DNA of 54,921 bases from Nitrospirales bacterium (lineage in GTDB: Bacteria; Nitrospirota; Nitrospiria; Nitrospirales; UBA8639), in NCBI GenBank assembly GCA_029261275.1, contig JAJDBR010000253.1, positions 1 to 54,921 on the forward strand, written 5' to 3'. The position numbers and the translations under genes were made by a program. How positions within the stretch are numbered: position 1 is the stretch's first letter; every line of letters begins with the position of its first letter. The notes beneath the pieces are model-generated. The model was given only the letters and a program-made list of their open reading frames with translations. It was not told the origin of the DNA and ran no database searches. Of this stretch, positions 448 to 26,844 are shown in pieces.

Positions 448-1192
448 TGGTCAACCCCTCCCCACCATCAAATTAGGAATTGGGACCTTAACATTTCTCA
501 TAGATTTGAGGAAAAGGTAAAATCACACGACGTATCTAGATTGTTCTGAAAAAAGAGGAGCTCTTGAGGGTCGCCCAGAAATAGAATAGAGTTGGCCATG
601 CTAGGCCCATGCCGAGACCCATCCGGATCGAGGACGACCTCAAGGCCTTTAATGATCTCAACTGGACTGCTGCGGGGATGGGAGATAATGCCTTTCTCAC
701 TTCGGCACGTAAACGCTAATTGCAGGAGGTCGACGACAAAGTCTTTGTGACGCAGATCTTACCCAACACTCTCTCCATGGCCCGCATCAATACAATTGTT
801 GGGGCATACTACAAAGTTGAGCCCACCAGCCAATCAGGGTCTTTAAAGTCCAAAAGAAAGAGTTACTCGCCCACAAGGTGCGGCATGTATCTCTGTCAGC
901 CGCTTTGTAGCTTTTGCTTGACAAACATCATACGCCAGTTTGGTTTGTCCAACGTAGTTTCCGTGAGTTTCATCACCACGCAGATACAAAGGCGCAGTAA
1001 GCAAATCTGCTGTATCCTCCAAGACCCTTTACCATTTAAACGCTATTGTATAAAATCCGCAACTTGCCTCCCTAATTATCACAGGACTTGGGTGGAAGAT
1101 CGGATTAAAGTCTCCCTTTGGGCCTACCGATCTTTTGATAACAATGCGCTTCAGATTTCGTCTTCAATTTTTAGCACACGGAAATCGATTGT

Positions 1193-2191
1193 ATGCACTC
1201 CAACGTTAGCCATGGGGCGATTGTCCAGTGTCTCCAGGACGAGTTAACCCCTGGCAGATTAGGCAAACGGTTTCATGACGGAGCAAAAGCTGTCCTGTTG
1301 GAGGATCCCCGCGCGTCTGACATATGGCACGGTCTTTTGAACCCCAAAGCGCCTGCGACATCAGCAACTGGTAGAGGCCTTTTCCCGTCGGACAGTGGCC
1401 TCCTCGAGATGGCCCAGAATCATCTCACTGGTAATTTAGACGCAGGGGACATGTTGCGTTTTATCCCAGGCGGCATTGGTCATATTGCACGGAAGATTAC
1501 TCTTTTCCCTGCATTGGACGGTTCCATAGAGACCATACCCGCCCACATCGCTCACGTTGAAATGCCTCAAGAGCTCTTAAATACCGTCTGGGAGCTCATG
1601 ACCGATGTGTTGCACAGCACCTTCCCAGCCCAGTCTCCCCTCCCACCGTATGTGGTTACCATAGAAATGCTCAAATATCCCCTTTCCTTCGATGAAGTCG
1701 AACAGATCGCTGAGCTGCTTAGCGATGCCAGCGGGGTCTGGACTCGCCTTGCCATGAAAATGGATGTCTGGAAAGTACAGGCAACCGGGCCCTTTGCTAT
1801 CCGATATCTGAGAGAAATTTTTGCCCTCGCATCGCTCATTCCAGGACTCCACAAGCTTCTTTACACAGTGAATTCCTGGATGACCCCGTTTACCCATCAA
1901 CACGTTCCGGAAGGGACTCGCATCATTGGCGATCCGCATTACGATGTCTCGAAGATCGTCACGGCGCTACTCAGTGAGCGCGAGACACTCACCACAGAAA
2001 TCCATACGGGCAAGCAGTGGATCGAATTACCGTTAGACTCTGAACGCCTAGCTATTTTCCCCTCGCAGCAAATTGATCCACACTTCGGTATTCTCCCTAC
2101 CCTGCACCGAATCTTAGTACAAAACCACACTCCTATTGAGCCACCGACAAAACCTAACCTTACATTGTGCCTCACCGTGCGCCCATGTTGA
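1193..2191 (+). CDS. Hypothetical protein, possibly 2OG-Fe(II) oxygenase/isopenicillin-N-synthase-like fold
   Basis: 332-aa ORF. C-terminal half has HYD...TALLSERETLTTEIHTGKQWIELPLDSERLAIFPS...LPTLHRIL, which resembles an HxD...H double-stranded beta-helix. Exact start uncertain. Confidence 0.5.
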   Translation: MHSNVSHGAIVQCLQDELTPGRLGKRFHDGAKAVLLEDPRASDIWHGLLNPKAPATSATGRGLFPSDSGLLEMAQNHLTGNLDAGDMLRFIPGGIGHIARKITLFPALDGSIETIPAHIAHVEMPQELLNTVWELMTDVLHSTFPAQSPLPPYVVTIEMLKYPLSFDEVEQIAELLSDASGVWTRLAMKMDVWKVQATGPFAIRYLREIFALASLIPGLHKLLYTVNSWMTPFTHQHVPEGTRIIGDPHYDVSKIVTALLSERETLTTEIHTGKQWIELPLDSERLAIFPSQQIDPHFGILPTLHRILVQNHTPIEPPTKPNLTLCLTVRPC

Positions 2192-2687
2192 ATGCTTCTA
2201 GACGGGCAGAGTAGTCCGCCACTTGCAAAGACAACTCAATGAAGGTAGTCATCAGGTGGTCGACTTCTCGCCCAATTTGAAGACAGCACTGGGCCAGTGG
2301 CACGTCTTCAACCGCATATCTAGCACGATCTCTTTCTGAGTCAATGAGGATGGGGGACGGTTAAACAGGTCAAAATCGTTCCCCACGTCAGGCCCAGGCA
2401 AAAAACCCATTTAAAATTCCTATTCATATATCTAAGCATTATTACCTAATTCATTAAGAAAGGCTTCCAATATTTGATGGATACCAAGAGCCACCTTGCC
2501 TTGTTGAGAAGATTGCATGATGACAAGGTGGGCAATCTGAATCGTCCAATGATTGGGTATCGATTCGATCGAATCAATGAACTTTTCGACCACCTGATCC
2601 TAATGTCTAGCTGAGTGGTCAACCCAGGACAGAGGAAGGCTCTTGATTCTAAATGGAATGAACTGAGGGGTTCACGGAAGGATTGAA

Positions 2688-3560
2688 TTATCCACGCAAA
2701 ACTGATTGCACCGCGTCGCCAATTTCGGCAGGATTTTTCACGACAGTGACGCCGGCAGATTCCAAGGCAGCCATTTTATCGGCGGCCGTGCCTTTGCCAC
2801 CCGTGATAATCGCACCTGCATGGCCCATACGGCGACCGGGAGGTGCGGTAATGCCGGCAATAAAACTCACCACGGGCTTGGTCATTTCCTGCTGGATGAA
2901 GGCTGCAGCTTTTTCTTCTGCATCCCCACCGATTTCACCGATCATGACCACGGCTTCTGTTTCATCATCGTTCTCAAACATATGTAATAAATCGATATAG
3001 CCCGTGCCAATGATGGGATCGCCACCAATTCCCACGCATGTGGTTTCTCCCAGCCCTAACTGGGTGAGCTGGTTCACCGCTTCATAGGTCAGCGTTCCAC
3101 TTCGAGAGATGACACCCACGCGCCCTTTTTTATGGATGAAGCCCGGCATGATCCCAATTTTGCATTCGTCCGCTGTGATGATGCCTGGGCAGTTCGGACC
3201 TATGAGGCGAGTGGCACGTCCATTGAGAGCACGCTTCACTTTCACCATGTCATTGACAGGGATGCCCTCCGATATACAAATTATTAGCCAAATTCCGGCT
3301 TCAGCGGCCTCTAAAATTGCGTCAGCCGCAAAGGGTGGGGGAACAAAGATCAATGAGGTCGTGGCTTCCGTTTTCTTCACGGCATCACGGACCGAGTTAA
3401 ACACAGGGATCCCTTCGACTTCTTGCCCGGCCTTGCCTGGCGTCACACCAGCGACGACCTCCGTGCCATAGGCTTTGCATTGAGTCGCGTGGAACGACCC
3501 TTCTTTCCCCGTGATCCCTTGCACGACCACTCGTGTATTCTTATTAACCAAAATACTCAT
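2688..3560 (-). CDS. sucD: Succinyl-CoA synthetase, alpha subunit
   Basis: 290 aa; [65 protein letters not shown] and [14 protein letters not shown] are SucD signatures. Confidence 0.97.
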
Positions 3561-14449: not shown

Positions 14450-14685
14450 GGACAAACGCTACTCATTTTAGGGTCGGACCTGATTACATGTACCGACCTC
14501 ACTTTAGCCATCTCCATCCGCCGCTCCGAGGCAAGCCTGAATCATTACAATCTTCATTCTTTACCCAACTCTTTCTTCGTTCGTTCAACCATACTTTAGT
14601 TGCCAATGCTTAGAGCCACCCCAAATTTCACATTCCTTGCGATTTGCGACACTGCCCTGCCGACTGCCAAAAAACTCTAGGTTTA

Positions 14686-17448
14686 TTATTTGATGCCGGA
14701 TGTGCAACACCTATTACGTACCGGCTCCGGCACCGAATGTTTAAGCCAACAGCGTGCCGAGGCGCCTTGGATTCCGGGTTTCACATAGGTCCATGCTTGA
14801 CATTTGGCTTCTGCGTTACAAGCGTTTTGACATTCTTTGGAGGAGCCAACGAGGAAATTACGATAGTCACGCCCGGGACGATCAATACCAATCCCTTGCC
14901 CCGTTTTTAGAATTCCCCGAATCCCCAGGGTATAGGGCTGCGCCGACCGCCCATTGTCGGAACTATCACGCAGTTCGAGGTAATAGGTGCCCGGGGCCGG
15001 CAGATCCACAATGCGGATATGGTCGACACCCGGTTTCTGCGCTGTTTGCCACCCATGCACCACCTTCTTGTTTGCCCCCCATACCTGAAACGTCACATTC
15101 ACTTCTTGCGGCATATTCGTGATGGCCACTTCTAAGGCCCCCTGCGCGGGAATCGCTAGCCGATACCAGTCGGCATCGCGCTTGGGGAGAATATTGGCTT
15201 GGATGGATTGCTCTAGTTTCAATGGCGTCGCCGTCGCTAGCGTGTTGTTGGGTTCGCCGGTGTCTTTGGTGGCTGTCAGGACGGTGCGCAAGGTATAGGG
15301 CTGCGCCGACCGCCCATTGTCGGAACTATCGCGGAGTTCGAGGTAATAGGTGCCCGGGGCCGGCAGATCCACAATGCGGATATGGTCAACACCCAGTTTC
15401 TGCGCTGTTTGCCACCCATGCACCACCTTCTTGTTTGCCCCCCATACCTGAAACGTCACATTCACTTCTTGCGGCATATTCGTGATGGCCACCTCTAAGG
15501 CCCCCTGCGCGGGAATCGCTAGCCGATACCAGTCGGCATCGCGCTTGGGATCAATGAAGCCTTGCAATCTAGTAGGGAGAGTGACCGCTTGAGCCGTATC
15601 AAGGGAATTATTGGGTTCCTGTTCCTCAAGGGTTGATGAAGAAGATTCCTGGTCGGGTTCGGTGGCCGTACCGGTTCGTTTTCGCGTCCCGTCCCACTTT
15701 TGGGCCGGCACATCTTCACAATACCCCCAAACACCTTTGAAGACGTCAAAACTTTCCGTAAAGGTGAATTGCACCTTGCCCCAATACGCACTACCATTCT
15801 TCTGGTTTGCACACTTCCGCTTGGAATTCGACTCAACCCATACTCCGGTGAAGACCAGACCATCAAACTTCCCAACCAGCCTGCCCCCATCCTGGTGGTA
15901 GTGCGCCGCCAAAGGGCCCGAATCCAAAAAGGTCAATTCGCCTTCGGTCGTCGTATAGGGGCCGGACGTGGGATACGGTCCTAGATCGACGCCAGGATCG
16001 TCACCGCCGGAGGTTCCGGTCCCGCCTGAGGTTTCTCCAAAAGAATGCTCCTCTGGCTCTCTTTGTTCTTCTGGCAAAGAAGGCAGATCTCCTGAGCCAC
16101 CGGGTTCTGACGTTGTTCCGGTTCCTTCTTGCGAGGTTGGGGGACTCGAAGAAGTCCCAGTGCCTTGCTCCCCAGTTCCTGAGGGACCGGACCCGTCAGC
16201 CTCTTGACCAGAGGGCTTAGAATTTGATCCCTCTGGGTGTTCGTAATCGGCAATTTCAATGGAAGTCGCTACGGGCTTATACACAAAGCGTAGATCGCCT
16301 ATGATAATTGCGGTCCAATTTTTCCAACGTTCACGTTCTTTTTTATCGGGAATGTAATGTATTAACCACTCAGGCCCTGGTATTTCCCGCGCATTCGCAT
16401 CAGCCGTAATTTTTGCAGTATAAAAAAATGAATACGGATCGGCTTGTTCTGAGATAGGTGTGTTTGTGTCTTCAGTGGGAAGGCTTGATTCAACATCGCC
16501 GGGAGGTCGAGACGATGTGTATTGAACTCGAAAACTCATTCGCTCTTCTTTTTTGACAGCCTCGATGGGGGCATTATGTTCAAGGCCTCTACGTTCACGT
16601 AATTTCGTGCCATCGCTGCAGTAGATCGTAAAGTCTGTACGACCCTTGAATCGTGCTCCCATAAAGGTGCTCGTTGAATTCATCAGCTCCGTACCAGCAC
16701 TCAACTGCATGGTACTTCCTGGAGAAGAACGTTTACTACTGGAACACCAGGGCCAACCTGATACTGTCTCAACACGTTGTACGGCCTCCCCTGCTATTTC
16801 AAACGGTTCCCCTGGAATTATTTCTCGTGGAAATTCTGTAAGCTTGGCACTGAAGGTTTTGGTTTTCCCCTTATGAGTATTACTTTTAGAGTAGCCCGAG
16901 CTATTCACCTGATGCTCAAAGCCATATAGATGTTCACGGTTATATCGAGGCTCAATACTCACCAATCGATAGATGGGCACCTTTGGCTGAATTCCCAAGA
17001 TTCGAAAACTGAACTGCAGGGTCTCTTTGTCATAGCTCAGTATTTGGTTGGATGAGGGAACAAAAAGAAGTTTCTCAACTATTCCCGGTTTGATATTTGT
17101 CGCGATATCAAAGGTAATTGCAAACACACGTTCTGATACACTTGCAAGGTTTTTTCGTTGAACAACCTCCACATTAAGTGCCACACCAGAAGCTTCTTCC
17201 AAGGCAAGTTCTATGTCAGTCGATTCCTCAATGCCATTTTCAAACAAGAGGCTGAGCAACACTTCATTCCCAATACTTCCGACATAAAACTCAGGCACCT
17301 GTTCAGGGGTAGAAGGCTCCGCAAACACTTGCGTGGAAACCACACAAGACAACACAAGCCAAACACAGAGCATTACATACTTTGAGGAAACAAAAAGGCC
17401 CAACCTCTCGAAGAAAGGCTGGCAATATGATGTAAGGGGTACAATCAT
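14686..17448 (-). CDS. Large secreted multidomain protein with two PPC-like beta domains and a C-terminal PAN/Apple-like domain
   Basis: 920 aa. Hydrophobic leader YVMLCVWLVLSCVVSTQVFA, a low-complexity P/S/T/G/E linker, a 'GKFDGLVFTGVW...KCANQKNGSAYWGKVQFTF' module, two PPC-like repeats (EPNNSLDTAQAV...DADWYRLAIPAQGALEVAITNMP...GTYYLELRDSSDNGRSAQPYTL) and a C-terminal C-rich module (CQNACNAEAKCQAWTYVKPGIQGASARCWLK...CCTSG). Start uncertain; Met at 17373 is an alternative. Confidence 0.8.
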   Translation of the reverse strand: MIVPLTSYCQPFFERLGLFVSSKYVMLCVWLVLSCVVSTQVFAEPSTPEQVPEFYVGSIGNEVLLSLLFENGIEESTDIELALEEASGVALNVEVVQRKNLASVSERVFAITFDIATNIKPGIVEKLLFVPSSNQILSYDKETLQFSFRILGIQPKVPIYRLVSIEPRYNREHLYGFEHQVNSSGYSKSNTHKGKTKTFSAKLTEFPREIIPGEPFEIAGEAVQRVETVSGWPWCSSSKRSSPGSTMQLSAGTELMNSTSTFMGARFKGRTDFTIYCSDGTKLRERRGLEHNAPIEAVKKEERMSFRVQYTSSRPPGDVESSLPTEDTNTPISEQADPYSFFYTAKITADANAREIPGPEWLIHYIPDKKERERWKNWTAIIIGDLRFVYKPVATSIEIADYEHPEGSNSKPSGQEADGSGPSGTGEQGTGTSSSPPTSQEGTGTTSEPGGSGDLPSLPEEQREPEEHSFGETSGGTGTSGGDDPGVDLGPYPTSGPYTTTEGELTFLDSGPLAAHYHQDGGRLVGKFDGLVFTGVWVESNSKRKCANQKNGSAYWGKVQFTFTESFDVFKGVWGYCEDVPAQKWDGTRKRTGTATEPDQESSSSTLEEQEPNNSLDTAQAVTLPTRLQGFIDPKRDADWYRLAIPAQGALEVAITNMPQEVNVTFQVWGANKKVVHGWQTAQKLGVDHIRIVDLPAPGTYYLELRDSSDNGRSAQPYTLRTVLTATKDTGEPNNTLATATPLKLEQSIQANILPKRDADWYRLAIPAQGALEVAITNMPQEVNVTFQVWGANKKVVHGWQTAQKPGVDHIRIVDLPAPGTYYLELRDSSDNGRSAQPYTLGIRGILKTGQGIGIDRPGRDYRNFLVGSSKECQNACNAEAKCQAWTYVKPGIQGASARCWLKHSVPEPVRNRCCTSGIK
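14929..15550. repeat. Internal tandem duplication, period 363 bp, covering the PPC-like domains
   Basis: About 258 bp of near-identical sequence at about 14929-15187 and 15292-15550 (both start 'tatagggctgcgccgaccgcccattgtcggaactatc' and end '...gataccagtcggcatcgcgcttggg'), with only a handful of substitutions. Confidence 0.92.
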
Positions 17449-20312
17449 TCGGAGGAAGTTCGTCCTTGTTTAACGCCTTTGACTTGTGCGGCGAAGCTGA
17501 GACTGGCTTTTCTCATGGCCACCACAGGTGGCAAGCCTTGCACTTGTACCGAACAGACCATATACGCAGGAGAGCCTTCTTCAATGTACGCCTCAATGCC
17601 CATTGGCTTTGTCACACCTTTGCTACTCATTTTTACTTCTTCAAGCTTTTCATTATGTGTGATTCGTCGCACATTTGAAGCCAACAAACCTGCGACCAAT
17701 CCTGAAGATTGGAGATCCCCTCGCCAGATCATCTTGTCATCCAGATAGTCTAGGATCTGTTGGGTGGCTGTACCAGACTCCCCATGTATTTGGCCTTCAA
17801 ATGCCCCATGGAGAATGGCATCCAAATTGGCGTGAACATCATTCTCCCGGGGAACGAGGAGTTGACAATGTTCGTAGACAGGCAAGGCATTCGGCCCAAA
17901 CTCAACTTTGGATTCAATGGTATACATGTCTGTCGAGGCTTCTTTCCAATTTTCATGATTCTTAGAATGTCTGGCATCTAAAGGCATGGTCAGGGATTTG
18001 GGCTTAGTCATTTGGATAGGGAAATTGCCATTGAGGCCTGGAACCATTCTGAACACATTATATTCAAGCTTCCAAGAATACGAAGACTGATCAGACGATC
18101 TCCCGATGGACATATTGGTGATTTGAATCCCAACATCTTCCACCATGTACAGGGTATTCGTTCTGGGATTGGACCGAGGATTTCCTCCAGCCACCACATG
18201 ACATGGGATAGCTTTGGATTCAATGGATGCCAGATTGTTCACCTTCTTTGACCAGGACGGTAAACCTTTGCCTGTCTTCTGGCTTCGATCAGCTTTATAC
18301 ACCCGTCCGCAATAGTCATAGTCAAATTGAATCACACTGGTTGGAATGCCAATAGGTTTCCAAGCATCTATTTCGGCCTCTAACTCAGGCTGACCTCCAT
18401 CAAAATGTTGATCGATAATCCGACTCAAATCTTCCTTTCTCTCTTCGAGACGTAAATCATAGGATCGCCATACCGGGATCAGATTGGCACGCACTTGGGT
18501 GCTGAGAAATCGAACCGCTCTAGGGAAATCCGGCAACCCAATCATTTCATTTGTCCATCCGGTCACCTGGCTTTCTTCGATAGAATGGGGAGGTCGTTGC
18601 AGCAACTTCTGCAATCCCTGCCACGTGACCTTTGACGATCTCACTGACGGGACCTTACTTTGTTTCCCTAATAGGGTGAGTATATCTTTTAACGAAACAT
18701 TATCCTCTGGACCGTTGGAAAGTGAGTGTTGAGAAATAAGGCTTCTGAGCGCTGAATCTGTGTTGGGTTGGACGTTTTTGCAAAGCTCTGACTCAACAAT
18801 TCTCTGTCCAACAAATACTTTGTCGGAATACGTCGTGTTCCCCCAATCGACCGATGACTCCCTAAGCTCATTTTTAAACTCACAAAGTACAATGATGGTA
18901 TCAACTGTTGCATTGATAGCATTAAACCTATCTTGATCAATAAAATCTGGCACGTGATTCGCCGTCGCATGCCCATGAAAGGTGTTGTAGGCCCCATGGG
19001 AATGCAGATCCTGGATGAAATGTAGAAGAGGGCCAGGGTTACGATCGTGTTTGGCCAATTCCCATAATTGCCGGACCGATTCCCCTCGTACGGCATTGAC
19101 GGCCTTTGTGGGAGCATGGGAAATGCCAAGTTTTATCGGTTCTTGGGGGTCCCAATACTCATTGAGAAGATAGATTTCAATATCTCGCATTAAGGCAGAA
19201 AAAATAAGAGGCCATGCCATTCCAGTTTCTTTTTGAAAAATTTGAATATGTGCAAGAAAGGGTAAGGAGGAAATTTTGTCATATATTCTGGTTTCCAAGG
19301 TCCATTTATGTATTTGGTCCTGGACTCTACGGTCGTTCTTCTTGAGGGAAATTTTTATGATGGCGTCCAGTACTGTTGAAATTTTTTGGAAGAATTGGTC
19401 TGTCGCGTCAATTGACGGTTTGCCCTCACAAGGCAAATAGTCTCTTTCCTCAATGAGGGGAACATCTAATTCGGATGAATAATTCGTTTGTATCGATGCC
19501 AAATTCTTGGCTAATTTGTTAGGGTTTTCACAGAGGCAGGCTTTCATCGACTCCTTCTGACAATAATTAATGGTCTCCATAATAAGGTCATAGGAATTCG
19601 CATCAAGCTTACTAAAATTTCCATTTTTCCCTTTTGCCGGAGTGGTGAGTTGGGAGGCAAGGCCCCAAGTTAAACGAGAGTTCGTCAGTATCCATCCTAG
19701 ATCGTTTTGTTGAAAACTTGCTAACGGAGAATCCAAGGATAAGAGGTCCGAATGTCCCGTTGAAAAATTGGTATGAAAATCAGATGACCTATTCTTATGC
19801 TTCTGCAAAACAATTGGCTGGAACGCATGGAGTTGAACCCATGTTCGCACGGCAGGATTTCGTTCAATCAAGGCATCGTAGTACTTCTGCCAGGCCTTTC
19901 CGAGCATATTGGCAGGAGGATACATGGCTTGCACCTTTCTGAGACTCAGCAAGGTCGCATCCTGATCTTTTTCTATGAGGCCTGGTTCCTTCGAGTTGTT
20001 CTTCCACAAGTTATGGTCTAATTCACCCCAAAGTTGATTCAATTTCTCGTCAAGATATCGAAACCGTTCCGCACCAAATGCGGTATCAACTTTACTGTCT
20101 AAAGGGCTGGCAATAGGATTGGTTTCACCATCCCAGTCCAAAGCATTCGTCCCGCTCGCAATTTGATAAGCTTGACGTTCGGTAAATCCCACCTGAAGGG
20201 CAAGGTAATACGTCCAGGCATAATGAAATATTCCCTCATAAGCCTTTGCGGTTGGCACAAAGAGGGTTTGGGAAAATACAATAACGAGGACGAAAAGTTT
20301 CATAGCTTTCAC
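17445..20312 (-). CDS. Large secreted protein with a PLC/P1-nuclease-like (zinc-site) signature
   Basis: 955 aa; signal peptide MKLFVLVIVFSQTLFVPTAKA; N-terminal HYAWTYYLALQVGFTERQAYQIASGTNALDWD and central LLHFIQDLHSHGAYNTFHGHATANHVPDFID, a His/Asp-rich helix pattern typical of PLC/nuclease-type Zn folds. Stop overlaps the downstream ATG (ATGA). Confidence 0.75.
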   Translation of the reverse strand: MKAMKLFVLVIVFSQTLFVPTAKAYEGIFHYAWTYYLALQVGFTERQAYQIASGTNALDWDGETNPIASPLDSKVDTAFGAERFRYLDEKLNQLWGELDHNLWKNNSKEPGLIEKDQDATLLSLRKVQAMYPPANMLGKAWQKYYDALIERNPAVRTWVQLHAFQPIVLQKHKNRSSDFHTNFSTGHSDLLSLDSPLASFQQNDLGWILTNSRLTWGLASQLTTPAKGKNGNFSKLDANSYDLIMETINYCQKESMKACLCENPNKLAKNLASIQTNYSSELDVPLIEERDYLPCEGKPSIDATDQFFQKISTVLDAIIKISLKKNDRRVQDQIHKWTLETRIYDKISSLPFLAHIQIFQKETGMAWPLIFSALMRDIEIYLLNEYWDPQEPIKLGISHAPTKAVNAVRGESVRQLWELAKHDRNPGPLLHFIQDLHSHGAYNTFHGHATANHVPDFIDQDRFNAINATVDTIIVLCEFKNELRESSVDWGNTTYSDKVFVGQRIVESELCKNVQPNTDSALRSLISQHSLSNGPEDNVSLKDILTLLGKQSKVPSVRSSKVTWQGLQKLLQRPPHSIEESQVTGWTNEMIGLPDFPRAVRFLSTQVRANLIPVWRSYDLRLEERKEDLSRIIDQHFDGGQPELEAEIDAWKPIGIPTSVIQFDYDYCGRVYKADRSQKTGKGLPSWSKKVNNLASIESKAIPCHVVAGGNPRSNPRTNTLYMVEDVGIQITNMSIGRSSDQSSYSWKLEYNVFRMVPGLNGNFPIQMTKPKSLTMPLDARHSKNHENWKEASTDMYTIESKVEFGPNALPVYEHCQLLVPRENDVHANLDAILHGAFEGQIHGESGTATQQILDYLDDKMIWRGDLQSSGLVAGLLASNVRRITHNEKLEEVKMSSKGVTKPMGIEAYIEEGSPAYMVCSVQVQGLPPVVAMRKASLSFAAQVKGVKQGRTSSE

Positions 20313-20441
20313 AGGTATGTCCTCCGAGATACTTTCATGTAAAGAATTTCATCATTCCAGATAACGACAACACCTGGGCAACCTCTCATGAACCCAAGGA
20401 TCAGAAATTGCTCCCCACCCCTTCTGTTGCTTTCAAGAGGT

Positions 20442-20915
20442 TCAATCCGAGTGAGGCGGTGGTCCGTTCAAGGTCTCCTCTAATTGGAACTTGTTTTTGG
20501 CTATCTCTTCTTCACATGCGGTGTTCTGAACCGTAGCTCGTGCCCCTTCCTTGAATTTTTTCATCCCCCAATGCCTTATAATAGCCACGTTTGCTTGTTC
20601 TTCTCCTGCATACCCATGGGTCTTCCAGAATTTCAACATTTTTGCCTCTTCTGCGGCCTCTTCTTCGGCCGACTGGTCATCAAAGAACCCTTCCCAAGAT
20701 TTTGGGTCGATGACCATACACAGAAGATCCGCATACATAGTACCAGCTTGTTCGGCAGCACCTTTTATCTCCTTTTCTACAACTTGCGCTGGCAATACCA
20801 CCGCGCACAGGAGGAGAATCCCTAAGAAAAAACGGGAAAGAATTTTTGACGAGAATTCGTGTTTTTCTCCATGACATCTTCCCTCTAAAAGGATTTCTAA
20901 AAGTTGGAGTGGCAA
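20442..20915 (-). CDS. Small secreted hypothetical protein
   Basis: 157 aa; leader KILSRFFLGILLLCAVVLPAQ; same strand and immediately upstream of the 955-aa secreted gene. Start codon uncertain. Confidence 0.6.
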   Translation of the reverse strand: MPLQLLEILLEGRCHGEKHEFSSKILSRFFLGILLLCAVVLPAQVVEKEIKGAAEQAGTMYADLLCMVIDPKSWEGFFDDQSAEEEAAEEAKMLKFWKTHGYAGEEQANVAIIRHWGMKKFKEGARATVQNTACEEEIAKNKFQLEETLNGPPPHSD

Positions 20916-21180
20916 GAATTACTCCTCCCGGGGCATCCTCGTTAGACCTTTGGCAACATTGCACAGACAGGGTTCCACGAGAAATTTCCCTTGAGAGGCA
21001 TAAGCTACTTGGGGCCTGAGCTCCATGAGACTTATCATCCCAATCATAATGAGCTCCTAACTTCTGATGTCTCTGAATGCCTAACTACCTGAACAGCCTC
21101 GAAACCACATAAAAGGTATTTTTGAAAAGAAGAAAAGTCAAGAGCACCCCCACCCAACTACAATGTACAACTAATGAAAA

Positions 21181-21229
21181 TATTTAAATCCTCGTATATG
21201 GCGAAATCCTACACAACGAGGATTAAATA
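21181..21229. repeat. AT-rich inverted repeat (hairpin), possible fbp terminator
   Basis: tatttaaatcctcgt ... acgaggattaaata, about 14-bp stem with one bulge and a 20-nt loop, about 80 nt downstream of the fbp stop. Confidence 0.5.
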
Positions 21230-21306
21230 AGACCAGTCATCTCTTCGGACATTAAATAGGGGTCAGACACGTTTTATTCCTTACCTCAACTTCGACAATT
21301 TTTATC

Positions 21307-22269: not shown

Positions 22270-22465
22270 GGTGAAAATTGTATATGGACCTCTAGAGCCC
22301 GTCAATTATTCGCCTGACCGTCGCATAAACAAGTAGATGTTGCAGAGCAAGGGGACAAATACTTTTGTAAACGCTTTAACTGCAACTAAAAGGTATTGGG
22401 AATCGAGTATAGTCAAAACACTTTGTGAGAGCTGGGGGGATGTACCATTGTTTGCACATGACTTT

Positions 22466-23368
22466 TTAATGAGAGGAAGCACTTTCTCGAAAAACCGCAG
22501 GGGACATTCCATGGAATTCTTTGAAGGTAGAAGAAAAGTGACTACGGCTGGAAAAACCTACTCGCATACCAATCTCTTCGACGGAATACGAACCACCGGT
22601 CAGCAACACAGCTGCTCTTTGCATTCGAAGGTGGTGAAGAAAGGTCATCGGTGGCTGACTAAACGCTCCGGTAAAACTTTCGGCAAAAACAGAACGGCTC
22701 ATACCTGCGACATCAGCCAGTGATTCGACTGTGTGATCTCCCCCAGGATCTTCAAGGATGCGATCCAGTGACTTCCCAAGTCGATCATCATCCAAAGCAG
22801 ACAACCAGGACAATGGCCCCTTATCAGCAAGATGTCGAAACAAATGCACCAGACATTCGTTCATCAAAGAAGCAACGAGGGCTTTACTGCCAGGACCAGG
22901 GTGGGATTGCTCAGCGAGGATACCTTGGAAAGCCGTGGCTACCTGGGATATCCCAGCTAAATCCGCAACGAGGATTTCTTTGAGATGCTGAAATAGTCTT
23001 AAGGACTGCCCATAGGTCACATGAATGATGCCACAGGCCACTACAAAATTTGGGTCTTTACAGGGACCCGCAACCAGTTCACATATGGAGCGATCCGTCG
23101 GCGGTTTTTCTATGCGCTTCTCATATTGAATGGGACCGTTGGGCTCAAGCGTATGAAGAGCACCTGGCGGAACCACCACCAACCCACAAGCTGAAATGGG
23201 TTGTCTGCCAGCTTCGGTGCCAATAACCGCACCTTCCCCTTTAAGAACGAAGTGAAGCATAACCGCAGGCGGTCCTGGCAGATGCAGTCGCCAACCCTCA
23301 CAGATCAAACACAACGCAAAAGGTTCAACAGAGATTTGGAGATTAGAGAGTAACTTATCCAATTGCAT
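22466..23368 (-). CDS. AraC-family transcriptional regulator (cupin-type N-terminal sensor)
   Basis: 300 aa; C-terminal HTH_18-like: SLADVAGMSRSVFAESFTGAFSQPPMTFLHHLRMQRAAVLLTGGSYSVEEIGMRVGFSSRSHFSSTFKEFHGMSPAVFR. Confidence 0.93.
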   Translation of the reverse strand: MQLDKLLSNLQISVEPFALCLICEGWRLHLPGPPAVMLHFVLKGEGAVIGTEAGRQPISACGLVVVPPGALHTLEPNGPIQYEKRIEKPPTDRSICELVAGPCKDPNFVVACGIIHVTYGQSLRLFQHLKEILVADLAGISQVATAFQGILAEQSHPGPGSKALVASLMNECLVHLFRHLADKGPLSWLSALDDDRLGKSLDRILEDPGGDHTVESLADVAGMSRSVFAESFTGAFSQPPMTFLHHLRMQRAAVLLTGGSYSVEEIGMRVGFSSRSHFSSTFKEFHGMSPAVFRESASSH

Positions 23369-23550
23369 ATGAAGCCTCAGTCTACAATGTCACCTTGATG
23401 GTCAATAAAAAATTTATGGCCCTAGCAGGCATCCTCAATTAGGACGCTTCCGCACATCTTTCGGACCACATCGCACTGGGTATTGTGCAATGCTCAAGCC
23501 CGGTTACACAAGGTAGATATTTTAAAATTAACAACAAAAAGAGGGAAAAA

Positions 23551-24330
23551 ATGAAATCAATTTCGGCAATGCAACGAACCCTATGGACTATCTCGCTTCT
23601 GGCTACCGTATTTCTGACAGGAATTGCTCATGCAGGACTACCCAACCCAGGGATGACGGTTGAGCCAGGAGAAACAGCTCTCGTCCTGACGGACCCACAA
23701 AATGACTTTCTCAGTCCAAAAGGTGTGACCTGGGGTGTTGTGGGAAAAAGCGTCGTGGCCAATAAGACCGTCGAACATATCGAAACTCTCTTAAAAACTG
23801 CCAAGAAGTCAGGAATCCCCGTATTCGTTTCTCCACACTACTACTATCCTACCGATCAAGAATGGAAATTTGGTGGGGCCGTCGAGACGATGATGCATGC
23901 CATCCATATGTTCGACCGTAAGGGAGCATTGACGACAAAAGGCTTTGATGGGTCAGGAGCAGACTGGCTAGCACAGTATAAACCCTATATTGAGGATGGA
24001 AAAACTGTTGTGTCCAGCCCCCATAAAGTCTACGGACCAGAATCAAATGATCTTACTTTACAGCTCAGAAAACGGGGCATCACCAAGATCATCCTGGCAG
24101 GAATGTCCGCTAATCTTTGCGTAGAATCTCATCTGCGAGAATTATTGGAGCAAGGATTTGAGGTTGCGGTAGTGAAGGATGCCACGGCTGCCGCGCAAGT
24201 TCCTGATCTTGATGGCTATCAAGCCGCCTTGGTTAACTTCCGATTCCTTGCCAGTGCGCTTTGGACAACAGAACAAGCCAGCAATGCCATGCAGGGGAAA
24301 AAGGAGACCACTTCAAAAAGTGCGCACTAG
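23551..24330 (+). CDS. Exported isochorismatase-family cysteine hydrolase
   Basis: Start at MKSISAMQRTLW (23551; RBS-like gagggaaaaa). Leader ending TGIAHAG; ALVLTDPQNDFLS (catalytic Asp), GITKIILAGMSANLCVESHLRELLEQGFEVAVVKDATAAA (catalytic Cys). Confidence 0.9.
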   Translation: MKSISAMQRTLWTISLLATVFLTGIAHAGLPNPGMTVEPGETALVLTDPQNDFLSPKGVTWGVVGKSVVANKTVEHIETLLKTAKKSGIPVFVSPHYYYPTDQEWKFGGAVETMMHAIHMFDRKGALTTKGFDGSGADWLAQYKPYIEDGKTVVSSPHKVYGPESNDLTLQLRKRGITKIILAGMSANLCVESHLRELLEQGFEVAVVKDATAAAQVPDLDGYQAALVNFRFLASALWTTEQASNAMQGKKETTSKSAH

Positions 24331-24410
24331 TCCGATGAGGAAATACTCAGTGAGAGCATGGTATTCAATCCAATTCAAAAACTGTCTCAATTTCATACAA
24401 GGAGAATAGG

Positions 24411-24947
24411 ATGAAAAATCTACGCTATTTAGCATTGTCGCTTGTCTTATTTATACCAACGTCAGCTCTAGCTGACGATGGAACTATTGCCAGCGCGGAA
24501 AGTGCTGGTCCGGCATCAATTTCCAAGCATGCCACCATTAAGGATTGGAATATGAAGGTTGTGCGAAAAGGGACCAATGATTGGACCTGCCTCCCAGATA
24601 ATCCAAAGACGTCAGGGACCGATCCTTGGTGTGTAAATGATCCCTGGCTCAACCTTCTGGACGCCATGATGAACAAAAAGAAGCCCACTTACACGAAAAT
24701 GGGCATCGCCTATATGCTCCAAGGGGACACCCCCGTCAGTAATACAGACCCGTATGCCACCGAACCCAAACCAGGTGATGATTGGGTCGACGGCCTGAAG
24801 GCCCACATGATGTTCCTCCTCCCCGATCAAGCACAATTGAAGAGCTTCCCAAGCGATTCACAAACCGGAGGCCCATGGGTCATGTGGGGAGATACCCCCT
24901 ATGCCCATTTAATGATGCCTATTGACAGTTACCCTGCGGCACAATAA
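24411..24947 (+). CDS. Secreted hypothetical protein
   Basis: 178 aa; signal peptide MKNLRYLALSLVLFIPTSALADD; SD aaggagaatagg; same strand, 80 bp after the hydrolase. Confidence 0.8.
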   Translation: MKNLRYLALSLVLFIPTSALADDGTIASAESAGPASISKHATIKDWNMKVVRKGTNDWTCLPDNPKTSGTDPWCVNDPWLNLLDAMMNKKKPTYTKMGIAYMLQGDTPVSNTDPYATEPKPGDDWVDGLKAHMMFLLPDQAQLKSFPSDSQTGGPWVMWGDTPYAHLMMPIDSYPAAQ

Positions 24948-25047
24948 AAGTATCCTATCTACTGGTGGATTGTCGCACGTTTTAGATGTGGCCCCAAAAA
25001 ATTCTAGGCAAGACCCGTATTTACTTACTGTTTAAATAGGAGAGAAA

Positions 25048-25728
25048 ATGAAAAAAATTTCATCTAGAGTCAAACAATCCTACGCAAGACCGACTGCCGT
25101 TATCGTTTTTGCATTCACCATCTTAGCACTGGCGCTTTCAGCACACGCCGATATTGCCGTAAAGTTTTTCGGAGAACTTGAAAAAGATCAACTCAGCCCA
25201 CAATTTAATGCAGTGGTAGATAACTTCTTCGACAACGATTCAAGGGTTCGTGATGATTTCTTCTGTTACCAGGGGGATCTGTTGGACCTACAGAACGGAC
25301 GGAAAGTTGGCATCGGTGTCGATTGCCTCAGTATCGCACAAATAGAAGATACCACTACAGGTATTGCGGTTCCGGATCCGCCGAATTTGGGCCTACTCAG
25401 TAACACCGTCAATGCTAGTGCGGCTGTTGACGCGGTGACGTTCTTTTTCCTCCCAGGTGGGTACATCGTCAGTGACGGTCTTACGACCGTTCGCCCCTTC
25501 TTTGCGGACATAGGTAATGGTGACGGCACTGCTGACGAGGGAAGCGTGACCCATATAACAGGTTCGGTTCCAGGCCAAACGCCAAATATTGTTGCTGCCA
25601 CTGGGAGATTTTCTAGGTTGACTAATACCGGAAACGTCCGTCTCTCTGGCGCGGTCAATCTTGGTAATGCGCCTGATGTGGTGTTCTTGAGCTGCCTATT
25701 TGTCATTAATTTTGATTCATTACCGTAG
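25048..25728 (+). CDS. Secreted hypothetical protein, possibly dirigent/allene-oxide-cyclase-like barrel
   Basis: 226 aa; leader FAFTILALALSAHA; C-terminal VAATGRFSRLTNTGNVRLSGAVNL resembles the barrel motif of dirigent/AOC-like proteins; SD taggagag. Confidence 0.7.
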   Translation: MKKISSRVKQSYARPTAVIVFAFTILALALSAHADIAVKFFGELEKDQLSPQFNAVVDNFFDNDSRVRDDFFCYQGDLLDLQNGRKVGIGVDCLSIAQIEDTTTGIAVPDPPNLGLLSNTVNASAAVDAVTFFFLPGGYIVSDGLTTVRPFFADIGNGDGTADEGSVTHITGSVPGQTPNIVAATGRFSRLTNTGNVRLSGAVNLGNAPDVVFLSCLFVINFDSLP

Positions 25729-25914
25729 AAGATAGTAGCCAAAATTCATGAAAGGAATCCATCATCGAAGTGCCCAAAACGCTTACCCATACCACGTGAA
25801 GGGTGCGGCTATCAGGATTTGTTGATTTAACCAATCATACCAATTCCTTAGGAGATTCAATTTTCTTTGACTGGCTTTTTGTGAATGATTTGGATTAAAT
25901 TGGCTTGAGAAAGA

Positions 25915-25951
25915 CATGTGGGATTGGGGAATATTTCTCCAATCCCACATG
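25915..25951 (+). terminator. Putative intrinsic terminator/hairpin
   Basis: catgtgggattgg...ccaatcccacatg, perfect 13-bp stem, followed by ctgcttttg, downstream of the 25048-25728 gene. Confidence 0.6.
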
Positions 25952-26079
25952 CTGCTTTTGCAGAAGTAAAGAGACTGCCCGAAATTTTTGGTTAGTGAAC
26001 TTTCCCCACAATTCCTGACTCAGTCCATTTAATAATGAACCGCTTTGCCAGGTGAGCAAGGGTTCCGTCAAATAGTCGC

Positions 26080-26844
26080 TTAACTTCTGGCAGTTAATTC
26101 GTACAAATACACCATCTTATCTTGGCTCTTTTCTTTTCGGGGAGGCCAGGTGAGAGGGATTTGTTCAATGGACAGATTAAACTTCTCTTGGAATGCGAGT
26201 TCAATCGTATCCAGCCCCAATCTATTTGGATCACAAAAGATGCCTTTTCCACCTGGAGAAAGCACTTGCTCAAGGACGTGAGCAATATCCGCTAAAATTG
26301 CCACGTCATAAAAAACTTCACAACCTAAGACCATATCATAGCGTTCTTCGGATGGAATTTTTTCTGACCAATCCAATGTGCACGTATCAAATTTCTTAAT
26401 GTGATTCAGTCGGCATGTCTCCTTGACCGCTTCCAAAGTCACTGGAACCATATCTGAGAACGTTGTGTACGCCCCAAGCTGAGCCGCGACTACTCCAGGC
26501 ACTCCTGTCCCGCATCCAATTTCCAAAACCTTTTCCCCTGTCAGTCTTTTCGGGAAAAATTGATGAATGAGATATTCCGACAAAGCCACTGAAGAAGGCC
26601 AAATCCGATCCCAATATCCCCAGCCAAGAGATTCGTTATCCCTTTTATCTAAAGGGGTTTCAACAGAAATGTCTCGTTTAGACTTACAGACGATAGAAAC
26701 ATCACCGATCCTGGGAAATGTCACAACTTTCACATGACTCACGCAAAGACCCCCTCTCACTGCAACAATTTGGGTTCCGTATTTAAAACTCTCTAGACTC
26801 ATTTTACAAGAATGGCTTGCACGATGAGCAACAAAGAATTTCAA
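26080..26844 (-). CDS. Class I SAM-dependent methyltransferase (methyltransferase_16/METTL-like)
   Basis: LGWGYWDRIWPSSVALSEYLI...GEKVLEIGCGTGVPGVVAAQLGAYTTFSDMVPVTLEAVKETCRLN...YDMVLGCEVFYD. True start may be an internal Met. Confidence 0.88.
   Translation of the reverse strand: MKFFVAHRASHSCKMSLESFKYGTQIVAVRGGLCVSHVKVVTFPRIGDVSIVCKSKRDISVETPLDKRDNESLGWGYWDRIWPSSVALSEYLIHQFFPKRLTGEKVLEIGCGTGVPGVVAAQLGAYTTFSDMVPVTLEAVKETCRLNHIKKFDTCTLDWSEKIPSEERYDMVLGCEVFYDVAILADIAHVLEQVLSPGGKGIFCDPNRLGLDTIELAFQEKFNLSIEQIPLTWPPRKEKSQDKMVYLYELTARS

What the first reader, a model, noticed from the sequence alone, without database searches (positions are those of the whole stretch)
14686..20915. Secreted multi-gene module: PLC/P1-nuclease-like 955-aa protein translationally coupled to a PPC-PPC-PAN 920-aa protein
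Seen: three same-strand genes with signal peptides (157, 955 and 920 aa); the two large ones share an ATGA overlap (17445-17448). Inference: HYAWTYYLALQVG...LLHFIQDLHSHGAYNTFHGHATANHVPDFID resembles the metal-ligand helices of PLC/P1-nuclease-like proteins. The partner carries a low-complexity linker, two PPC-like domains and a PAN/Apple-like C-terminus, suggesting surface binding. A coupled enzyme-plus-adhesin pair is a reasonable candidate for an undescribed exported or contact-dependent system.
Basis: partly seen in the sequence, partly recalled or inferred. Interest (0 to 1): 0.7.

Follow-up and report, generated by a model that had tools for sequence, protein, structure and literature searches.

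The report
Orphan secreted metalloenzyme plus adhesin-like partner
In one nitrite-oxidiser-like bacterium (Nitrospirota) a 6.8 kb, genome-specific insertion carries three exported proteins; the largest has nearly the full metal-binding signature of an uncharacterised protein family (DUF6765) that elsewhere also appears as a toxin tip, and its gene is coupled to one for a protein with common surface-binding modules.

Summary
Three minus-strand genes (157, 955 and 920 aa) have export signals, and the two large ones overlap by ATGA. The 920-aa protein has two PPC domains and a PAN_4 domain. The 955-aa protein (P955) has no relative in any genome searched. It does carry, in order, the two conserved blocks of DUF6765 (PF20551): H30 and D59 near the mature N-terminus, then HxxxDxxxH-...-GH-x6-PD at 431-456. 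Among 944 ORF segments from all fetched DNA, that second signature occurs only in DUF6765 proteins and P955. A helical metal site is therefore likely. The PLC/P1-nuclease fold is not shown: a good DUF6765 model (pLDDT 87) matched no solved structure significantly, and P955 could not be modelled. P955 differs from DUF6765 by a signal peptide, a far longer stretch between the blocks and a 500-aa C-terminal extension. Best reading: a probably recently acquired, exported DUF6765-like metal-dependent hydrolase with a surface-binding partner; substrate and role unknown. Moderate interest.

The parts
14484..21306 (.). genome-specific insertion between a conserved aldehyde dehydrogenase gene and a conserved FBPase gene
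   Evidence: flanks align to sister G009, where the two genes are 128 bp apart
14686..17448 (-). P920, exported PPC-PPC-PAN protein
16249..17316 (-). P920 N-terminal region (aa 45-400), orphan
   Evidence: no homologue in 396 phylum genomes or viral contigs; two E~0.006 hits in frames broken by stops
15949..16242 (-). Gly/Ser/Thr/Pro/Glu-rich linker (about aa 403-500)
   Evidence: read from translation
15289..15564 (-). PPC domain copy 1
14926..15201 (-). PPC domain copy 2, 95% identical DNA to copy 1
14740..14886 (-). PAN_4 domain (aa 855-903)
   Evidence: E 9.4e-18
17445..20312 (-). P955, DUF6765-like candidate metallohydrolase
20241..20312 (-). P955 signal peptide (aa 1-24), AKA|Y25
   Evidence: read from translation
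20130..20240 (-). block 1: mature N-terminus Y25...H30 (position 6) to D59/D61
   Evidence: DUF6765 profile match at aa 29-59
19827..19829 (-). H162 (WVQLHAFQP), possible counterpart of DUF6765 H79 (WxPFHFLPG)
   Evidence: inference; weak
19023..19826 (-). about 268-aa stretch (aa 163-430) against roughly 55 aa between H79 and H135 in DUF6765
18945..19022 (-). block 2: H431xxxD435xxxH439 ... G447H448 ... P455D456
   Evidence: pattern found only in DUF6765 proteins and P955; 0 of 20,000 shuffles
17448..18944 (-). P955 C-terminal region (aa 457-955), no known domain
20442..20915 (-). P157, small exported orphan upstream of P955

Best explanation
P955 is an exported DUF6765-like metal-dependent hydrolase, most likely a zinc phosphodiesterase or phospholipase. 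Signal-peptide cleavage would expose Tyr25 as the new N-terminus, placing His30 at position 6. His30, Asp59, His431, Asp435, His439, His448 and Asp456 would hold the metals, as the matching residues probably do in DUF6765. P920, translated from the overlapping gene, would be its surface-binding partner, using PPC and PAN modules to hold it on envelope, matrix or other-cell polymers. The genes arrived together as an insertion. Shown: gene layout, domains, residue signature, presence/absence of the module. Inferred: metal binding, catalysis, substrate, physical partnership.
For: Pfam DUF6765 partial match at E 0.008. A DUF6765 profile matches aa 29-59; only 1 of 5,000 shuffles scored as high. 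Invariant DUF6765 residues H6, D35, H79, H135, D139, H143, GH187, PD195 in 20 sequences; P955 has all but a clear H79, in order. Block-2 pattern in 20/20 aligned DUF6765 proteins and P955, in no unrelated one of 944 ORF segments. First His at position 6 of the native or mature N-terminus in DUF6765 (M1...H6), after the RHS DPTGL junction (Y1...H6, L074) and in P955 (Y1...H6). In S1 nuclease the mature N-terminal Trp coordinates zinc (PMC5201275). HET-C, with HxxxDxxxH, was linked to PLC/S1-P1 by others (PMC3482391). ATGA overlap and joint presence.
Against: P955 is below Pfam's gathering score (16.2 against 26.6 bits). hhalign gives only 22.7% probability, for block 1 alone. An automatic alignment did not align block 2 because of the long stretch between blocks. 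No significant fold match for DUF6765 to PLC, P1 or anything solved (alpha-toxin is second at E 0.98, TM 0.19). The P955 model is meaningless (pLDDT 36). No paper in the library names DUF6765, so no activity can be borrowed from it.
Confidence: 0.5

Rival explanations
1. The module is an antibacterial toxin-immunity unit: P955 is a secreted membrane- or nucleic-acid-attacking effector, P920 brings it to the target cell, and P157 is the exported immunity protein.
For: A DUF6765 domain occurs as the C-terminal tip of an RHS protein right after the DPTGL junction; genome-specific insertion; small exported orphan directly upstream.
Against: P955 and P920 have ordinary signal peptides, with no RHS, T6SS, CDI or LXG trafficking domain; no defence or phage family match of note; no second immunity copy seen; P157 matches no known family.
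Confidence: 0.15
2. P955 is an ordinary secreted nutrient-scavenging phosphoesterase, giving phosphate from lipids or nucleic acids in the biofilm; P920 only anchors it.
For: Several known zinc phospholipase C and S1-P1 enzymes are secreted scavengers (own knowledge); PAN and PPC are common surface modules in this lineage, e.g. VOMI-PAN, 4xPAN and TPR-PPC proteins.
Against: No phosphate-uptake genes lie nearby; genome-specific rather than conserved.
Confidence: 0.2
3. P955 is not an active enzyme: it keeps degenerate remains of a DUF6765-like domain, or the blocks are convergent, and the protein is a structural or binding partner of P920.
For: No clear H79 counterpart; very long stretch between blocks; sub-threshold scores; no homologues to show selection on the motif.
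Against: All other invariant ligands are kept in order, the block-2 signature is absent from unrelated proteins, and the first block sits exactly at the mature N-terminus.
Confidence: 0.15

Closest known systems
DUF6765 (Pfam PF20551)
   Same: H6-like His at the mature N-terminus, D about 29 residues on, HxxxDxxxH, GH-x6-PD, same order
   Different: DUF6765 proteins are about 350 aa, start at the first block without signal peptide and have about 100 residues between blocks; P955 has a signal peptide, about 370 residues between blocks and 500 extra C-terminal residues; score below cut-off
RHS protein with DUF6765 C-terminal domain (locus L074/L088, Pseudomonadota)
   Same: same ligand signature, His at position 6 after the DPTGL junction
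   Different: delivered as an RHS tip, not by its own signal peptide; no PPC/PAN partner seen
HET-C domain (Tox-HET-C of PMC3482391)
   Same: all-helical, HxxxDxxxH
   Different: no HET-C match in P955 among Pfam hits; GH...PD block not in the published HET-C motif list
[quoted passage not shown]
   Same: secreted, ligand close to the mature N-terminus, several His/Asp from distant parts of the chain
   Different: no Pfam match; spacing HxxxDxxxxxH there (own knowledge) against HxxxDxxxH here; fold not shown

Membership tests
DUF6765 (PF20551) | score above gathering cut-off (26.6 bits) | tested here: not met
   16.2 bits, aa 29-56 only
DUF6765 (PF20551) | invariant H6, D35 block at the N-terminus | tested here: met
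   H30/D59 in an ungapped 31-residue match
DUF6765 (PF20551) | invariant H79-F80 (WxPFHFLPG) | tested here: inconclusive
   only WVQLHAFQP at H162 is vaguely similar
DUF6765 (PF20551) | HxxxDxxxH followed by GH-x6-PD | tested here: met
   aa 431-456; pattern specific to DUF6765 and P955
Zinc-dependent PLC / S1-P1 nuclease | family profile match in Pfam | tested here: not met
   no such match at E<=1
Zinc-dependent PLC / S1-P1 nuclease | PLC/P1 helical fold | tested here: inconclusive
   P955 model useless; DUF6765 model has no significant hit, alpha-toxin second at E 0.98
Zinc-dependent PLC / S1-P1 nuclease | trinuclear zinc and phosphodiesterase activity | not testable with these tools
   needs protein
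HET-C | Pfam HET-C match | tested here: not met
   absent
PPC / PAN_4 surface proteins (for P920) | domain profiles above cut-off | tested here: met
   PPC 29.6 against 25.9, PAN_4 64.4 against 27 bits
Polymorphic toxin / contact-dependent system | dedicated trafficking domain and recognisable immunity gene | tested here: not met
   no such domain in the three proteins

The most novel reading that the evidence does not exclude
A previously undescribed exported weapon or remodelling system in which a DUF6765-type metalloenzyme, activated by exposure of its own N-terminus on signal-peptide cleavage, is carried to target surfaces by a separate PPC-PAN protein.
Probability: 0.1. Interest if true: 0.7.

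Novelty: new variant of a known kind. Interest (0 to 1): 0.38.

Why it matters
DUF6765 is annotated as of unknown function. If its ligand set binds zinc through the exposed N-terminus, then this orphan, the stand-alone family and the RHS-borne form become one testable enzyme group, used inside cells, as toxin tips and as exported enzymes. For this nitrite-oxidiser-like lineage it would be a candidate for surface interaction acquired by a single strain or species.

Tried and rejected
Single-sequence AlphaFold2 of P955: pLDDT 36, not used further. Two genome-contig scans with P955 or its motif: only a chance IclR hit. Weak hits in G308 (GGDEF protein) and G420 (glycosyltransferase) judged chance; one in G501 was not inspected. 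Plasmid and phage tblastn: none. PDB by sequence for P955 and DUF6765: nothing meaningful. Foldseek viral library: nothing. The idea that GGGGTCAGAC-like motifs at both ends mark insertion borders: the exact motif is rare, but one-mismatch matches are not above chance, so not pursued. A start-site frameshift in P157 was considered and dropped because the TTG start has a strong Shine-Dalgarno.

Full report
What is there. The window is contig C172 of a 3.8 Mb, 283-contig genome. ATP-citrate lyase, aconitase and oxidoreductase genes in the window suggest a Nitrospira-like autotroph; this is inference from gene content, and the phylum is my reading, not a tool result. Three minus-strand genes concern us: P157 (20442-20915), P955 (17445-20312) and P920 (14686-17448). 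The last two overlap by ATGA. All three have N-termini that read as export signals. Codon use and G+C of the module are close to those of its neighbours, so nothing marks it as compositionally foreign.

An insertion. In five same-genus genomes the flanking genes are present without the module. In G009 the FBPase and aldehyde dehydrogenase genes (88% and 87% identical to the window's) are 128 bp apart; in the window the same two are separated by 6.86 kb. Flank homology stops at about 14483 and resumes at about 21316. In G001, G005, G006 and G007 FBPase lies next to the ATP-citrate lyase gene. The module is therefore a gain in this genome or a loss in the others; gain is simpler because no genome searched has it.

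Orphans. P955 has no homologue in 60 relatives, about 296 genomes of the phylum, 399 of the phylum of a Sphingobium genome (Pseudomonadota), plasmids, phages or viral contigs. The genome-contig scans need exact short peptides and are weak tests. The N-terminal 400 aa of P920 and all of P157 are also orphans. Matches of P920 elsewhere are confined to its PAN and PPC modules, which in relatives sit in unrelated proteins.

P955 carries the DUF6765 signature. Pfam gives one sub-threshold match, DUF6765, at aa 29-56. I collected 20 DUF6765 proteins, one from a relative and the rest from Pseudomonadota. Their invariant columns include H6, D35, H79, H135, D139, H143, G186-H187 and P194-D195, a set typical of a multi-metal site. 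A profile of these matches P955 aa 29-59; 1 of 5,000 shuffles scored as high. The second block, H431xxxD435xxxH439...GH448...PD456, fits a pattern found in all 20 DUF6765 proteins; among 944 ORF segments of all DNA in hand it occurs only in DUF6765 proteins and P955, and in none of 20,000 shuffles. The pattern was written after seeing P955, so the shuffle figure overstates the case; the agreement with an independent family and the specificity among real proteins are the better evidence. H79 has no clear counterpart; H162 is the best guess.

The N-terminus. DUF6765 proteins begin Met1-x-x-[DE]-x-His6 or close to it, with no signal peptide. In an RHS protein of a pseudomonadotal genome the domain follows the DPTGL junction, so that release there would give Tyr1...His6 (cleavage after this motif is from general knowledge of RHS proteins). 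In P955 cleavage after AKA gives Tyr25...His30, again position 6. In S1 nuclease the mature N-terminal Trp coordinates zinc through its main chain (PMC5201275). The shared spacing suggests, but does not show, that the free N-terminus is a metal ligand here too.

Fold. AlphaFold2 of P955 alone failed (pLDDT 36). The DUF6765 alignment gave a good model (pLDDT 87, pTM 0.90), mostly helical, but Foldseek found no significant solved structure; C. perfringens alpha-toxin ranked second at E 0.98 with TM 0.19, which is not evidence of a shared fold. So 'works like a PLC/P1 enzyme' is plausible from the ligand set; 'is a PLC/P1 enzyme' is not established. The published link of HET-C (HxxxDxxxH) to PLC/S1-P1 was itself called borderline by its authors (PMC3482391).

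P920. Two PPC domains, recently duplicated (276 nt at 95% identity, spacing 363), and a C-terminal PAN_4 domain fit binding to surface polymers. A low-complexity linker and an orphan N-terminus complete it.

Conclusion. This is an exported, genome-specific, DUF6765-like candidate metallohydrolase with an adhesin-like partner: real and somewhat unusual, but not a demonstrated system. Steps shown are the gene layout, the domains, the residue signature and the insertion; metal binding, catalysis, substrate and partnership are inferred.

Noticed in passing
L074 (reverse strand 1051-3480), L088: An RHS-repeat protein of a pseudomonadotal genome ends in a DUF6765 domain directly after its DPTGL motif: DUF6765 as a likely polymorphic-toxin tip; no paper in the library names DUF6765.
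   Followed up: partly
A1 (20 DUF6765 proteins; L018, L053-L071, L074, L079): DUF6765 invariants (H6, D35, H79, H135, D139, H143, H187, D195) look like a complete metal site with the first His always at position 6 of the protein; good AF2 model, no solved relative.
   Followed up: partly
window 14926-15201 and 15289-15564: Two PPC domain copies 95% identical over 276 nt: very recent duplication or gene conversion.
   Followed up: partly
window 22306-26080: An AraC-type regulator, an exported isochorismatase-family protein and two exported proteins without Pfam match fill the FBPase-methyltransferase gap that is only about 76 bp in G009: a second insertion in the same neighbourhood.
   Followed up: partly
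window 14470-14482 and 21259-21268: GGGTC[AG]GAC motifs lie at both ends of the insertion; the empty site in G009 has one. May be chance.
   Followed up: partly
L005, L007: Relatives carry VOMI-PAN-PAN and four-PAN proteins, so PAN_4 is a common module in this bacterial family.
   Followed up: no
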